Source: Amycolatopsis lexingtonensis
GTDB taxonomy: Bacteria > Actinomycetota > Actinomycetes > Mycobacteriales > Pseudonocardiaceae
Assembly: GCF_014873755.1 (NCBI RefSeq)
Contig: NZ_JADBEG010000001.1
Span: forward strand, 7,972,501 to 8,036,500
Length of the DNA stretch: 64,000 nucleotides
Direction of reading: 5' to 3'
Position 1 is the first letter of the stretch. Every line of letters starts with the position of its first letter. The notes beneath the pieces were generated by a model. That model searched no databases. It worked only from the letters and a program-made list of their open reading frames with translations, and had not been told where the DNA came from. A program made the position numbers and the translations under genes. This document shows, piece by piece, positions 2,918-45,252 of this stretch.

Positions 2918-3706
2918 ATGCCGAACGCTGAGCTGCTCACCCCGGTCGAGGTGGACTTCCTGTGGGAGTCCGCCGGGCTGGGCGAGCTGCCGTACCCGCT
3001 GCGCATCCGCTCGCACGGCGAGACCGTCGACGAGCGGGCGGTGCTGCGCCGCCGCACGTTGGAGGGCCTCGTCGCGCGCGGCCTCGCCGACGGCCGGGGG
3101 CGGCCCGAACCGCACGTCGAGGACTACTTCGGCGTGCTCGCGGGCGCCGAGCTGAGCCTGGACGCCGTCCAGCTGATCGCGCCGGACGCCGAGCCGCTGC
3201 TCGCGATCGCCGGCGTCCTGGGCGGCCAGGGGCTCTTGGCCGTGCAGGACCGCCGCGGCCTGCACCTGAACCCGTGTCCGACCGACGGCCTGGCCAGCGC
3301 GATCGTCTCGCTGCTGCCGGGTGCGCCGCGTGGCACCGAGAAGTCGATCACGGTCCCGCTGGAGCAGCTGGTCGGCGCGCACGGCGTCGACTTCCTGCAG
3401 CGGCGGGGCAACGGCGACGACCGTTCGTCGGCGGACGAGGACCGCAAGGCGCTGGCCCGGCTGCACGCCCAGCCCCGCCTGCGCGGCGGCCAGATCGCGG
3501 CCAACGCCCGCTCCCGCGTCGGCGGCCGCACCCGGACGCCGGTGCTGAGCTGGTTCGACACCGAGACGGGCCGCTACTTCACCCAGGCGACCCGTGGCCA
3601 CGACGGCCGCGACTGGATCACCATCGCCCCGGCGGACGCGGCGACGCTGCGCCACCGCCTCGGCGAGATGCTGGCGACGGCGGCGAGTTCGACCGCGCCG
3701 GTCTGA
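2918..3706 (+). CDS. EspG-like ESX secretion-associated chaperone (copy 1)
   Basis: EspG proteins are cytoplasmic chaperones that bind the tip of PE-PPE dimers and keep them soluble before type VII secretion. This 262-residue protein has the family's opening (LTPVEVDFLWE, then LPYPLRIRSHG) and its C-terminal layout, with the RGGQIAAN segment and a final FDTETGRYF strand. The ATG at 2918 is used; the frame is open further upstream, but that would read through the preceding terminator hairpin. A second homologue lies at 4142 and is clearly paralogous (shared FLWES, GELPYPLR, RSHG, RGGQ.AAN and WFDT). Two chaperones beside one substrate pair may mean different client specificity. Confidence 0.85.
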   Translation: MPNAELLTPVEVDFLWESAGLGELPYPLRIRSHGETVDERAVLRRRTLEGLVARGLADGRGRPEPHVEDYFGVLAGAELSLDAVQLIAPDAEPLLAIAGVLGGQGLLAVQDRRGLHLNPCPTDGLASAIVSLLPGAPRGTEKSITVPLEQLVGAHGVDFLQRRGNGDDRSSADEDRKALARLHAQPRLRGGQIAANARSRVGGRTRTPVLSWFDTETGRYFTQATRGHDGRDWITIAPADAATLRHRLGEMLATAASSTAPV

Positions 3707-32679: not shown

Positions 32680-34110
32680 TCAGGCGGCGGGCTTGAGGCC
32701 GCCCGGGTACAGGTACTGGTCGGCGGGCTTGCCGGTGCCGTACACCCACGCGTCGAAGAACCCCTGGAGGTTCTTGTGCGAGACGGCTTCGGTGTACCGC
32801 TGGAACTGCTGCATGCTCGCGTTCCCGTCGCGGTGCAGCGACGGCCAGGTCTTCAGGACCCGGGAGAACGCCTGCTCGCCGACGTAGTTGCGCAGCGCGT
32901 GCAGCATCATCGGGCCCTTCGAGTACACGTACGTGAACTCGTTGCCCTGCCCCATGTCGTAGAGCTTGCCGTTCCAGAACGTCGTCGTGGCCTTCTTGAC
33001 GTCGTCCGCGTACTGCTTGTCCAGGTCGACGCCTTCCTTGCCCTCGTCCCACAACCACGTGGCGTAGGAGGCGAAGCACTCGTTGAGGCAGACGTCCTTC
33101 CAGTGCTCGACCGCCACCGAGTCGCCGTACCACTGGTGGGCGTTCTCGTGGACGATCGTCGGCACCGTGCCGGCCCAGCCCGCGGAGTAGATCGGCCGGC
33201 TCATCGTCTCCAGCGAGAAGCCGATCTGCTCGTTGAGGAAGATGCCGCCGGCGGCGTCGATCGGGTACTTGCCGAACTTCGACTCGAGGAAGTCGAGGAT
33301 CTCCGGCAGCCGCGCTTCGGCCTGCTTCGTCGAGTCGGGCACACCGGGGGCGAACGCGCTGACGATCGGCGTTCCGTCCTTGCGGGTCTGCCGGTCGAAC
33401 GTCCACTTGTCGATCGCGACCGTCGTCAGGTACGGCACGATCGGCGTTTCCTCGGCCCAGACGTGCGTGGTGCCGCCCGGTGCCTTGAAGGACGGCTTCT
33501 CGCGGCCGTTGGCGATCACGCCCCACTCGTCGGGCACGGTGATCGCCAGGTGGAACGTGGCCTTGTCGAGCGGGGTGTCGTTGACCGGGTACCAGGTGGT
33601 CGCCGACCGCGGCTCGCCGGCGGCGAACGCGCCGCCCGCCTGGGCGAACTGCCAGCCGTTGTTGCCGAGCGCCGGATCGTTGATCGGTGCGGGCACCCCG
33701 TGGTAGGCGATCTCGACCTTGAAGTTCCGGCCGCGCCACAGCGCCCGCGAGGGCGTGACGACCAGCTCGTGGTCGCCGGTCCGGGCGAACTTCGCGGCCC
33801 GGCCGTCGACCTTCACCGAGTCGACGGTCAGGCCCTTGAAGTCCAGGTCGAACGAGCTGAGCGACTGGGTCGCCCGCGCGGAGATGTCCTGTTTCCCGGT
33901 GAGCTGGTGCGACGCCGGGTCGTAGGTGACCTTGAGGTTGTAGTCGGCGACGTCGTAGCCGCCGTTGCCGTCCTGCGGGTAGTAGCTGTCCCCGGCGCCG
34001 TCGCTGCCGGGCTGCGCGCCCCAGCCGTCGCCCGCCGCGGCGACGCCGGTGCCCAGGCAGAGGCTGGCGACCACGGCGGCCGCGACGACGACCGGTTTCT
34101 GTCCCCTCAT
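32680..34110 (-). CDS. Secreted M1-family metallopeptidase
   Basis: This 476-residue aminopeptidase-type enzyme has a Sec signal peptide (residues 1-25, cleaved near GVAAAGD). The zinc motif is HENAH at residues 321-325, with the third ligand Glu344 in CLNECF, an exact 18-residue spacing. It lacks the long C-terminal arch of PepN and is the compact secreted type. The ATG at 34110 has an AGGAG site. A paralogue that is a lipoprotein lies at 43846-45252, and both share the YYPxDGNGGYD opening. It is divergent from the AfsR-like regulator, with 158 bp between. Confidence 0.92.
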   Translation of the reverse strand: MRGQKPVVVAAAVVASLCLGTGVAAAGDGWGAQPGSDGAGDSYYPQDGNGGYDVADYNLKVTYDPASHQLTGKQDISARATQSLSSFDLDFKGLTVDSVKVDGRAAKFARTGDHELVVTPSRALWRGRNFKVEIAYHGVPAPINDPALGNNGWQFAQAGGAFAAGEPRSATTWYPVNDTPLDKATFHLAITVPDEWGVIANGREKPSFKAPGGTTHVWAEETPIVPYLTTVAIDKWTFDRQTRKDGTPIVSAFAPGVPDSTKQAEARLPEILDFLESKFGKYPIDAAGGIFLNEQIGFSLETMSRPIYSAGWAGTVPTIVHENAHQWYGDSVAVEHWKDVCLNECFASYATWLWDEGKEGVDLDKQYADDVKKATTTFWNGKLYDMGQGNEFTYVYSKGPMMLHALRNYVGEQAFSRVLKTWPSLHRDGNASMQQFQRYTEAVSHKNLQGFFDAWVYGTGKPADQYLYPGGLKPAA

Positions 34111-41579: not shown

Positions 41580-42947
<1,368 letters not shown>

Positions 42948-42965
<18 letters not shown>

Positions 42966-42985
42966 GCCGGGGAAGAGGTCGGCGT
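42948..42985. repeat. 38-bp direct repeat, left copy
   Basis: This copy is identical to 43843-43880 at 36 of 38 positions. It contains the end of the AAA gene (CAGTGA) and supplies the ribosome site and GTG start of the unknown gene. Confidence 0.95.
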
Positions 42986-43844
42986 GACGAACGCACCGGA
43001 TAGTTGGTCACCTGCGGACAATCCGTACGCGATCGCGGTTTCCGAAGCGTACTGGTGGCTGCAGTGCGTAGAGCTGAACGAAGCTCGAATCCATGAGGAT
43101 GATGACCCACGGACTGCGTTCAGCTCACGCCAGATCGACGCTCGTCAGCTGGTCGTGGCCTTGTGGGAGCTGTGCATGGCGGAGAAGCTGCAGCAAACGG
43201 CCTTGCGGGAATTGAAGATGGAGTTGGCGGTGATCGCCGAGCTGAGCCGTGCCCGGGTGGCGTTCGACGAGGCTGTTCCCGGCCTCCAGCAGATGCGGAA
43301 CGGTTTGCTGCACTTCGACCAGTGGACCCGCGGCGTCGGCGAAGGACCGCAGAAGAAGGAGGTCAAGGCGGGGGCGGATCCGCGGCTCGTCGCGAGCAAG
43401 TACTCGCGCTTTGGCTACGACCCGGCCAACGATGAAGTCGAGTTTGGGCCGTACTCCTTCCGAGTAGCCACTGCGGTCGAAGCCGCGAAGGATCTCGTTC
43501 GTGCTATCCATCGTGCGGCGCAAGCGGTCGACTTGCGTGCAGCCGCCGAATTGCGGACTCGGACGATCGCGGCAATGACGGCTTCGTCCATCCAGACGGA
43601 AGGAACTATTCGGGTATCGACCGGCGTGGATACCCGAGTTTGGGTATCGCTGGCCGCCACTGCTCCGGAAACCAATCGTGAGGTGCTGGCCGAGCAGGTG
43701 ATCGGTGTGCTCGTGGAGGCCGGATTGCGACTTGTGTCGTCTATGGAACCGCAAAGCGACAATCCGGCGGAGCGCTTGCGGAGCGGCGAGTCCCTCTGCG
43801 TTGAGTCGGTCGATTCGACGCCACGACCCGAGATCGCCAAGTAG
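42984..43844 (+). CDS. Unknown protein, lower-GC, flanked by direct repeats
   Basis: This 286-residue soluble protein is not recognised. It is helical and Ala/Glu-rich, with a Trp-rich start (EAYWWLQCVELNEARI), an LRELKMELAVIAELSRARVAFDEA helix, a QMRNGLLHFDQW motif that recalls the RNxLxH/HEPN-like type, and a C-terminal domain with strands (RVSTGVDTRVWVSLAAT). Codon use is less GC-biased than its neighbours'. The GTG start lies in the left 38-bp repeat and the TAG stop in the right copy, so the gene fills the insert exactly. It was probably acquired; a defence or toxin-like role is only a guess. Confidence 0.75.
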   Translation: MTNAPDSWSPADNPYAIAVSEAYWWLQCVELNEARIHEDDDPRTAFSSRQIDARQLVVALWELCMAEKLQQTALRELKMELAVIAELSRARVAFDEAVPGLQQMRNGLLHFDQWTRGVGEGPQKKEVKAGADPRLVASKYSRFGYDPANDEVEFGPYSFRVATAVEAAKDLVRAIHRAAQAVDLRAAAELRTRTIAAMTASSIQTEGTIRVSTGVDTRVWVSLAATAPETNREVLAEQVIGVLVEAGLRLVSSMEPQSDNPAERLRSGESLCVESVDSTPRPEIAK

Positions 43845-43880
43845 TTCAGCTGCGCAGTGAGCCCGGGTAGAGGTCGGCGT
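43843..43880. repeat. 38-bp direct repeat, right copy (in the M1 3' end)
   Basis: This copy includes the C-terminal codons and stop of the M1 lipoprotein gene (minus strand) and is probably the original site. The left copy at 42948-42985 differs at two bases. The repeat period is 895 bp. Confidence 0.95.
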
Positions 43881-45252
43881 CCGCGGGGAGCGTCGTGCCG
43901 TGGAACCACGCGGCGAAGAACTCCTTCAGGTTCTTGCCGCTGACCTGTGTCGCCATCGTCTCGAAGTCCGCCCAGGCCGCGTTGGCGTGCCGGTACCGGG
44001 ACGGCCATTCCTTCAACAGCCGGTCGAACGCCGGGTCGCCGATCTCGCGGCGCAGCGCGTGCAGCGCCAGGATTCCCTTGTTGTAGACGCCTTCGAACTC
44101 GTGGCCCTGCCCCATCGCGACGAGCTTCTGCGCCCAGAAGTCCGTGCTGCCATGGGTGATTTCGATCGCCGCGCGGTAGCGGTCGTCCAGGTTCTGGCCC
44201 TCGCGCTCGGCCCACAGCCACTGCGCGTACGACGCGAAGCACTCGTTCAGGCAGATGTCGGACCAATCGCGCAGCGAGACCGAGTCGCCGAACCACTCGT
44301 GGGCGTTCTCGTGCACCAGTGTCGGCAGGTCGGCCCACTTCGCGTACGTCGGGCGGGTCTGCGTCTCGAGCGAGAAGTGGACGTCCTCGTTCAGGAAGAT
44401 GCCGCCGGCCGCCGATTGCGGGTACGGGCCGAACTTGCCGCTCAGGAAGCCGAGGACCTCGGGCAGGCGCTCGCCGATCGCGCGGTGGCCTTCGGCGCCG
44501 GGGGCGTACGCCGAGACCACCGGGGTGCCGTCCGGCAGTGTCGACTTGTCGACGCTGAACTTGCCGATCGCGATCGTCGTCAGGTAGCTCGCCACCGGGT
44601 TCGGCTCGGTCCACGTGCCCGGCGGGCCTTCCCGGCCGTTCGAAATGACCGTCCACCCGGCCGGGACATGCGCGGTGAGCGTGAAGGTGGCCTTGTCGCG
44701 CGGGGTTTCGTTCACGGGGTACCAGAACGCGGCCGAGTGCGGCTCGCCGACCATGAACGCGCCGCCGTCGGCCGAGTGCTGCCAGCCGTTCTCGCTGCCG
44801 CCTTCGTGCGGGGTCTTCGCTGGGTCGCCGCCGTAGCGCACCCGCGTGCGGAACGTCGTCCCGGCGCGGATCGGCGACGACGGCGTGATCACCAGCTCGT
44901 GCGCCTTCTCCCGGCTGAAGCGCGCCGGCCGCCCGTCGACGTCGACGCCGCGCACGTCCAGCCCGCGCAGGTCGAGGTCGAAGCGGCTCAGGTCCTGGGT
45001 CGCCTGAGCGGTGATCGTCGTGTCGCCGTCGAGGTGGCCGCTCGGCGGGTCGTAGGTGACGCCGACCTGGTAGCCGAGGGCGTCGTAGCCGCCATTGCCG
45101 TCGTCCGGGTAGTACGCGTCACCGCCGCCGGACGCTCCCGGCGTGGCGTGCAGGGGCGGGGGCTGGGGCACGCCGGAGACGGCGTCACCGCTGCAGGCCG
45201 CGGCGAGGATCACCGCGGCGCAGACGGCGAGGGCAGCGAGTCGGCGGCGCAT
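43846..45252 (-). CDS. M1-family metallopeptidase, lipoprotein
   Basis: This 468-residue enzyme is a paralogue of the protein at 32680-34110. The N-terminus is a lipoprotein signal (LAVCAAVILAAACSG, lipid-modified Cys near residue 20), so it is anchored on the outer face of the membrane. The zinc motif is HENAH at 314-318 with Glu337, at the correct 18-residue spacing. The YYPDDGNGGYD opening and AGGIFLNE segment match the paralogue. Its 3' end was duplicated as the left direct repeat when the unknown gene entered. Confidence 0.92.
   Translation of the reverse strand: MRRRLAALAVCAAVILAAACSGDAVSGVPQPPPLHATPGASGGGDAYYPDDGNGGYDALGYQVGVTYDPPSGHLDGDTTITAQATQDLSRFDLDLRGLDVRGVDVDGRPARFSREKAHELVITPSSPIRAGTTFRTRVRYGGDPAKTPHEGGSENGWQHSADGGAFMVGEPHSAAFWYPVNETPRDKATFTLTAHVPAGWTVISNGREGPPGTWTEPNPVASYLTTIAIGKFSVDKSTLPDGTPVVSAYAPGAEGHRAIGERLPEVLGFLSGKFGPYPQSAAGGIFLNEDVHFSLETQTRPTYAKWADLPTLVHENAHEWFGDSVSLRDWSDICLNECFASYAQWLWAEREGQNLDDRYRAAIEITHGSTDFWAQKLVAMGQGHEFEGVYNKGILALHALRREIGDPAFDRLLKEWPSRYRHANAAWADFETMATQVSGKNLKEFFAAWFHGTTLPADADLYPGSLRS

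What the first reader, a model, noticed from the sequence alone, without database searches (positions are those of the whole stretch)
42948..43880. Single unknown gene inserted exactly between two 38-bp direct repeats
Copies at 42948-42985 and 43843-43880 agree at 36 of 38 positions. The right copy is the 3' end of the M1 lipoprotein gene. The left copy supplies the AAA gene's last codons and the start of the unknown gene, whose stop lies in the right copy. This looks like insertion of a one-gene cassette (about 895 bp) at the 3' end of a conserved gene, duplicating that end. No integrase is present, and the gene's codon use is less GC-biased than its neighbours'. It may be the reduced form of a larger element, or a mobile gene type with an unrecognised mover.
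Basis: partly seen in the sequence, partly recalled or inferred. Interest (0 to 1): 0.75.

Follow-up and report, generated by a model that had tools for sequence, protein, structure and literature searches.

The report
Single-gene insertion between overlapping convergent genes
A lone gene that looks like a bacterial RNA-cutting defence gene has slipped into the seam where two neighbouring genes overlap tail to tail, copying the overlap so that both neighbours survive; close relatives still show the empty seam.

Summary
Confirmed: two 38-bp direct repeats (36/38), unique in the 10.7-Mb genome, bracket one 286-aa ORF. The repeat is the overlap of two convergent genes (AAA, M1): in 28 of 32 junctions examined these genes overlap by 15 or 25 bp with no ORF, the nearest relative G068 included. 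Three genomes carry the ORF here (one broken). By flanking genes the three are not one clade, and their ORFs are about equally divergent (dN 0.30-0.32) while their flanks are not (dN 0.03-0.13), so ORF alleles were gained separately or exchanged. No mover is seen; 19 other family loci lack such repeats. The protein matches no Pfam, NCBIfam, PADLOC or PHROG family but has an invariant R-x4-H motif placed as in HEPN RNases; fold comparison was inconclusive. In Streptomyces-type prophages the family sits in a variable terminase-portal slot that also holds kinase, Mrr-type and PD-Lambda-3-like genes. Best reading: a prophage-type, probably anti-phage HEPN-like gene captured at a chromosomal seam, the overlap duplicated so both neighbours survive, spread and lost by host recombination. 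Route and function are inferred. Ordinary in kind; the unannotated family is the better lead.

The parts
41580..42965 (+). AAA ATPase gene (left conserved neighbour); its last codons and TGA lie in the left repeat
   Evidence: ORF; Pfam AAA E 1.6e-16; found in 34 of 80 genus genomes at E<=1e-100
42948..42985 (+). left 38-bp repeat copy: AAA 3' end plus 20 bp beyond its stop; supplies a GAAGAGG Shine-Dalgarno-like stretch and the first two bases of the ORF's GTG
   Evidence: same as the empty site of G068 except one base
42984..43844 (+). inserted ORF, 286 aa, HEPN-like (R105-N-G-L-L-H110), member of an unannotated family
   Evidence: ORF; 203 matching proteins, the window's own among them; alignments; model; motif counts; no family match
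43843..43880 (+). right 38-bp repeat copy: 3' end of the M1 gene (read on the minus strand)
43846..45252 (-). M1-family peptidase-like lipoprotein gene (right conserved neighbour)
   Evidence: ORF; Pfam Peptidase_M1 E 3.4e-19; M1-family matches in 60 of 60 genomes searched, own included

Best explanation
An accessory gene of a prophage-associated, HEPN-like (probably RNase, probably anti-phage) family was inserted into the tail-to-tail overlap of AAA and M1. The event duplicated the 38-bp overlap segment, so each neighbour kept an intact 3' end; insertions here that did not duplicate it would truncate a gene and be lost. The gene has no mover. The occupied junction is gained, exchanged between species and lost through host recombination: homology in AAA, M1 or the repeat on one side, possibly a short microhomology (GGCGT) on the other; deletion between the direct repeats would restore the exact empty site. 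SHOWN: repeats, empty sites, three occupied sites, carriers not one clade by flanks, ORF divergence not following flank divergence, atypical GC3, prophage slot for the family, invariant R-x4-H. INFERRED: the recombination route, loss through the repeats, RNase and anti-phage function.
For: Overlapping junctions without the ORF: 18 genomes with 15 bp and 10 with 25 bp overlap, of 32 examined. On the tree of the flanks G068 is the sister of G000 (88/92, below the starred level) and is empty; the three carriers as one clade are rejected, p-AU 4e-5; the fewest changes of state are 3. ORF G000/G005: pS 0.62, dN 0.32, against pS 0.15 and dN 0.03 in both neighbours; ORF dN is 0.298-0.316 for all three carrier pairs whatever the flank distance (G082 pairs rest on 115-126 codons). 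In the ORF tree G005 groups with G082, not with its nearer genome G000 (88/91). G082's ORF frame runs into the AAA-derived stop (read). The G000 left copy is the G068 allele but for one base, while the right copy differs from the left at two positions. G005 and G082 share the left breakpoint GGGAA|T and a related leader. R105 and H110 in 68 of 68 rows, residue 106 D or N; helix 101-109 ends just before H110 in a model with pLDDT 91.8. Family between terminase and portal in 6 of 6 viral loci and in 4 of the 26 genome loci in which the ORF was found again; in 22 related prophages the interval is 425-3624 bp (portal found in 21) and holds the ORF in 7, two of them fragments.
Against: No clear imported tract in AAA or M1 beside the insertion: the 250 bp of M1 next to it differ by 10.0% between G000 and G068 against 4.8% beyond, but the two empty genomes G003 and G068 show 8.4% against 5.2%. 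G000 and G005 as one clade by flanks is not rejected (p-AU 0.155), and G005 with G082 in the ORF tree is not a starred branch. dS of the ORF is near saturation, and low-GC3 genes may change faster. The shared GGCGTG is only 6 bp. HEPN is not reached by any sequence profile, and the fold hits are tied with unrelated helical bundles. No phage gene was recognised beside the window copy. Of 10 slot cargo proteins only 3 have clear links to defence families, and 22 of the 26 genome loci show no portal or terminase. Positions of the closest relatives (P0003, P0004, P0017, P0018, P0024) are unknown.
Confidence: 0.55

Rival explanations
1. Ancestral presence: the ORF sat between AAA and M1 in the common ancestor and was lost many times by recombination between the repeats, which leaves a perfect empty site.
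For: Deletion between direct repeats would regenerate exactly the 15-bp overlap seen in relatives. All three carriers use the same junction, and G005 and G082 the same left breakpoint. The three carrier ORFs fall in one clade of 8 rows (100/98).
Against: 28 of the 31 other examined junctions overlap with no ORF, and the more distant ones overlap by 25 bp with other sequence. ORF dN is the same for near and far genome pairs, and the ORF tree differs from the flank tree, so exchange is needed anyway.
Confidence: 0.2
2. Separate insertions of different family members into the same junction in each lineage (a true insertion hotspot), each duplicating 27-38 bp.
For: Deep ORF divergence with native-looking flanks. 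Repeat length differs: 38 bp in G000, 27-28 bp in G005 and G082. G065 shows another junction-spanning partial duplication, so the seam allows such events.
Against: The carriers' right boundaries coincide within a few bases, and G005 and G082 share the left breakpoint and a similar leader. Carrier ORFs lie in one well-supported clade, although G091 of the same genus carries another lineage elsewhere.
Confidence: 0.25
3. Remnant of a larger integrative element whose attachment site is the 38-bp repeat.
For: The repeat lies at gene 3' ends, as attachment sites often do (recalled).
Against: The repeats hold only this ORF, no integrase. No other copy of the 38-bp sequence in the genome. Both other occupied sites also hold only this ORF. 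No tblastn match of the ORF in 72,556 plasmid or 50,697 phage records.
Confidence: 0.03

Closest known systems
Minimal mobile element (Saunders and Snyder 2002; not read, seen as citations and passages in PMC1538595 and PMC2649163)
   Same: One accessory gene between two conserved genes, present, absent or different between strains, moved without a mobility gene of its own (definition mostly recalled; the PMC2649163 passage says it facilitates horizontal exchange of gene cassettes).
   Different: Here direct repeats made from a gene overlap bound the cassette, and no clear exchange tract in the flanks was seen; natural transformation of the host is unknown.
Small variable segments with flanking direct repeats (PMC2884548, section 10 and passages read)
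   Same: Short variable segments between backbone genes; 10-18% of them repeat-flanked, with empty versions explained by deletion between repeats.
   Different: There 66-94% of the repeats are under 30 bp. Here the repeat is 38 bp and is the coding overlap of two convergent genes.
Prophage defence hotspots (PMC9122126, passages read)
   Same: Small variable loci between two conserved phage genes that hold defence genes; the family's prophage members sit in such a slot.
   Different: The window copy is chromosomal with no recognised phage gene beside it; the function of the slot here is untested.
Tha, prophage HEPN anti-phage RNase (PMC11087260, passages read)
   Same: Prophage-encoded protein of similar length (301 aa) with motif R265NSIMH270, against R105NGLLH110 here.
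   Different: HEPN is C-terminal in Tha and N-terminal here; no sequence relation shown.
HEPN superfamily (PMC3710099, passages read)
   Same: R-x4-6-H at the end of helix 3, polar residue after R.
   Different: No profile match; extra C-terminal alpha-beta part in the model.

Membership tests
HEPN superfamily | R-x4-6-H motif with polar residue after R | tested here: met
   68 of 68 rows R105 and H110; residue 106 D (61) or N (7)
[quoted passage not shown]
   model helices 14-36, 48-76, 81-97 and 101-109 (taken by me as a kinked helix 3), later a long helix 161-200; feature from PMC3710099
HEPN superfamily | HEPN helical-bundle fold | tested here: inconclusive
HEPN superfamily | profile match to a HEPN family | tested here: not met
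   0 Pfam families for the ORF at E<=1; no HEPN family among the 19 weak families hit by 36 members at E<=10
HEPN superfamily | RNase activity | not testable with these tools
   -
Minimal mobile element | variable gene between two conserved genes, absent in relatives | tested here: met
   3 occupied of 32 junctions
Minimal mobile element | no mobility gene in the cassette | tested here: met
Minimal mobile element | exchange by homologous recombination in the flanks | tested here: inconclusive
   ORF history conflicts with flanks but no clear imported tract seen
Integrase-driven element | integrase or recombinase within the repeats | tested here: not met
   only the ORF, without a family match, lies between the repeats
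Prophage defence cargo | family members in a variable slot between conserved phage genes | tested here: met
Prophage defence cargo | window copy inside a prophage | tested here: not met
   its two neighbours are AAA and M1 genes found as a chromosomal pair in relatives

The most novel reading that the evidence does not exclude
The duplicated overlap acts as a self-made, integrase-free attachment site: the single HEPN-like gene leaves as a circle through the 38-bp repeats and re-enters empty AAA-M1 seams in other strains by the same short homology, so that a target-derived repeat alone makes a one-gene mobile defence element.
Probability: 0.12. Interest if true: 0.7.

Novelty: new member of a known kind. 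Interest (0 to 1): 0.42.

Why it matters
It shows how a gene can enter a seam where two genes overlap without harming either, with occupied and empty states in close relatives. It also exposes an unannotated, patchily distributed actinobacterial protein family with a HEPN active-site motif and a home in a prophage cargo slot, a concrete candidate for a new anti-phage RNase.

Tried and rejected
Integrase-type element: rejected, see rivals. Family-wide insertion signature: tested on 19 other loci with ungapped direct repeats; none above its shuffle control. Fragmentary loci (L090, L093-L096, L098-L101) were not given to that test. L077 showed a weak imperfect repeat (score 10, control maximum 12); its upstream half resembles the leader of the prophage copies, so it is not used as evidence. 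Excess divergence beside the insertion as a trace of import: not clear. Plasmid and phage records: no match. Solved structures by sequence: none at E<=10. The first genome-contig scan with the single protein found nothing; the alignment scan gave 28 loci, in two of which (L100, L101) the ORF was not found again at E<=1e-8. Holding the G000, G005 and G082 ORFs as one clade is rejected (p-AU 1.3e-7), but only because database proteins of unknown position fall among them, so it does not speak about the site. Fold search: unrelated helical bundles rank above the HEPN chains; Foldseek had no hit of any kind at E<=0.001.

Paper searches. The search for Streptomyces prophage terminase-portal hotspots returned one paper, on Sinorhizobium prophages (listing only); the Amycolatopsis insertion search returned none. 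These are the only grounds for saying that I saw nothing in print on this site or slot.

Full report
WHAT IS THERE. Two direct repeats of 38 bp, 36 of 38 identical, stand at 42948-42985 and 43843-43880. They occur nowhere else in the window or in the 10.7-Mb genome, with up to 3 mismatches allowed. Between them lies one ORF, 42984-43844, 286 aa. Left is an AAA ATPase gene on the same strand, right an M1 peptidase-like lipoprotein gene on the opposite strand. AAA's stop ends at repeat position 18 and M1's stop begins at repeat position 4: collapsed to one copy, the genes would overlap tail to tail by 15 bp. The left copy also gives the ORF a GAAGAGG stretch just upstream of its GTG and the first two bases of that codon (sequence).

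EMPTY AND OCCUPIED SITES. The AAA gene is found in 34 of 80 held genomes of the genus at E<=1e-100. I examined 32 of these junctions, the window's included (G077 was not fetched; G093 had no M1 in its stretch). 18 overlap by exactly 15 bp, 10 by 25 bp, G094 has a 96-bp gap, and three are occupied: G000 (the window), G005 and G082. One of the 28 overlapping ones, G065, carries in addition a partial tandem copy of the junction. G005 (contig length as that of an Amycolatopsis solani protein record) has a 282-aa ORF, 60% identical, in the same junction with a repeat of 27 bp. A fourth genome, G091, carries a family member elsewhere, and its own junction is empty. In all, 4 of 80 genomes in the genus, 8 of 390 in the family and 3 of 394 drawn from the class have a match, the window's genome counted each time.

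HISTORY. On a tree of the two flanking genes (21 genomes) the window's sister G068 is empty (88/92, not starred), the three carriers as one clade are rejected (p-AU 4e-5), and the fewest changes of state are three; G000 and G005 alone as one clade are not rejected (p-AU 0.155). Between G000 and G005 the flanks differ at pS 0.15 and dN 0.03, the ORF at pS 0.62 and dN 0.32. ORF dN is 0.298-0.316 for all three pairs (those with G082 on 115-126 codons), whereas flank dN is 0.03 for G000/G005 and 0.065-0.13 for pairs with G082. dN is not saturated, so a uniformly fast-evolving, vertically inherited gene does not fit well; dS alone would not decide, being near saturation. In the ORF tree G005 groups with G082, P0004 and P0017 (88/91), and G000 with database proteins P0003 (named Amycolatopsis camponoti) and P0024 (99/98), all in one clade of eight (100/98) that leaves out G091. 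ORF dN/dS between G000 and G005 is about 0.25 from the values, so those copies look selected. Against the exchange reading, no clear excess divergence beside the insertion was seen in the carriers. M1 of G000 is less like G068 (92.7%) than AAA is (97.6%), a faint hint of import on the right only.

HOW IT PROBABLY HAPPENED. An insertion into an overlap of two genes spares both only if the overlap is duplicated, so the long repeat needs no special mover: it is what selection would keep. In G000 the left copy equals the G068 empty-site allele but for one base, while the right copy differs from the left at two positions, as expected if the left side is native and the right side came with, or changed after, the cassette. 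The left join lies at GGCGT|G; the leaders of G005 and G082 also contain GGCGTG. A homologous join on the right and a microhomology join on the left would give this structure. That is inference, and the microhomology is short. The seam in G065, with a second partial AAA 3' end preceded by about 85-90 bp of M1 sequence, shows that additive events occur here. Loss by deletion between repeats would leave no scar.

WHAT THE GENE IS. 203 proteins match at E<=1e-3 among 7999 scored candidates (the best 120 listed, the window's own among them); the ORF matches none of Pfam, NCBIfam, PADLOC or PHROGs. R105 and H110 are invariant in 68 rows, with D or N after R. The model (pLDDT 91.8) is a helical bundle followed by a small alpha-beta part, with the motif where PMC3710099 places it, at the end of helix 3. 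The structural comparison lists several HEPN proteins but cannot set them apart from other bundles. So HEPN-like is supported by motif and its place, not by profile or fold rank.

WHERE ITS RELATIVES LIVE. Ten of the 43 loci checked have a phage portal gene on one side and a terminase gene on the other, in some with further cargo between: all 6 viral loci and 4 of the 26 genome loci in which the ORF was found again (two pairs are probably the same genomes). The nine loci have only short flanks and showed neither. In 22 related prophages the terminase-portal interval is 425-3624 bp (portal found in 21) and holds the ORF in 7, two of them fragments. Ten cargo proteins were scanned: three have clear links to defence families, namely a kinase like PD-T4-6 (a generic kinase match), a PD-Lambda-3_B/Hypoth_Ymh protein and an Mrr-type nuclease; the rest are weak or have no match. 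This resembles the prophage defence hotspots of PMC9122126. A copy 78% identical to a prophage one (L077) lies in a chromosome between a convergent melibiase and ROK pair; 7 of 12 loci fetched from the genus of G793 show both genes, their aligned parts 56-154 bp apart, and no ORF; in the other 5 the melibiase was not found in the stretch.

VERDICT. A real single-gene insertion of a known kind (small variable segment, minimal-mobile-element-like), with the instructive twist that the target-site repeat is a gene overlap. The unannotated HEPN-like family in a prophage slot is the more promising lead.

Noticed in passing
window about 32692-34092, minus strand: A second M1 lipoprotein gene, 54% identical to the M1 gene at the insertion (G000:C1:8005192-8006592), about 10 kb away; a similar second gene near the first recurs in many relatives in that list.
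   Followed up: no
L117 (G065) 3180-3660: AAA 3' end duplicated: full AAA, about 85-90 bp of M1 3' end, then a second 107-codon AAA end that overlaps M1 by 25 bp.
   Followed up: partly
L073 (G082): The AAA gene beside the broken ORF also matches in two pieces in different frames (residues 1-289 and 285-461), so it may be frameshifted there.
   Followed up: no
L139-L160: Prophage family whose terminase-portal interval is a variable cargo slot (425-3624 bp) with kinase, Mrr-type and Ymh-type genes.
   Followed up: partly
L077 5995-6852: Family member in a chromosomal convergent melibiase-ROK junction, 78% identical to a prophage copy.
   Followed up: partly
P0095, P0108: Longer relatives (471 and 483 aa) carry an added C-terminal region with its own R-N-L-V-V-H motif (motif read by eye).
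   Followed up: no
window 41580-42965: The AAA gene itself is patchy: 46 of 80 genus genomes have no match at E<=1e-100; weak PADLOC match to IetA, E 9.6e-13, likely the general AAA core.
   Followed up: no
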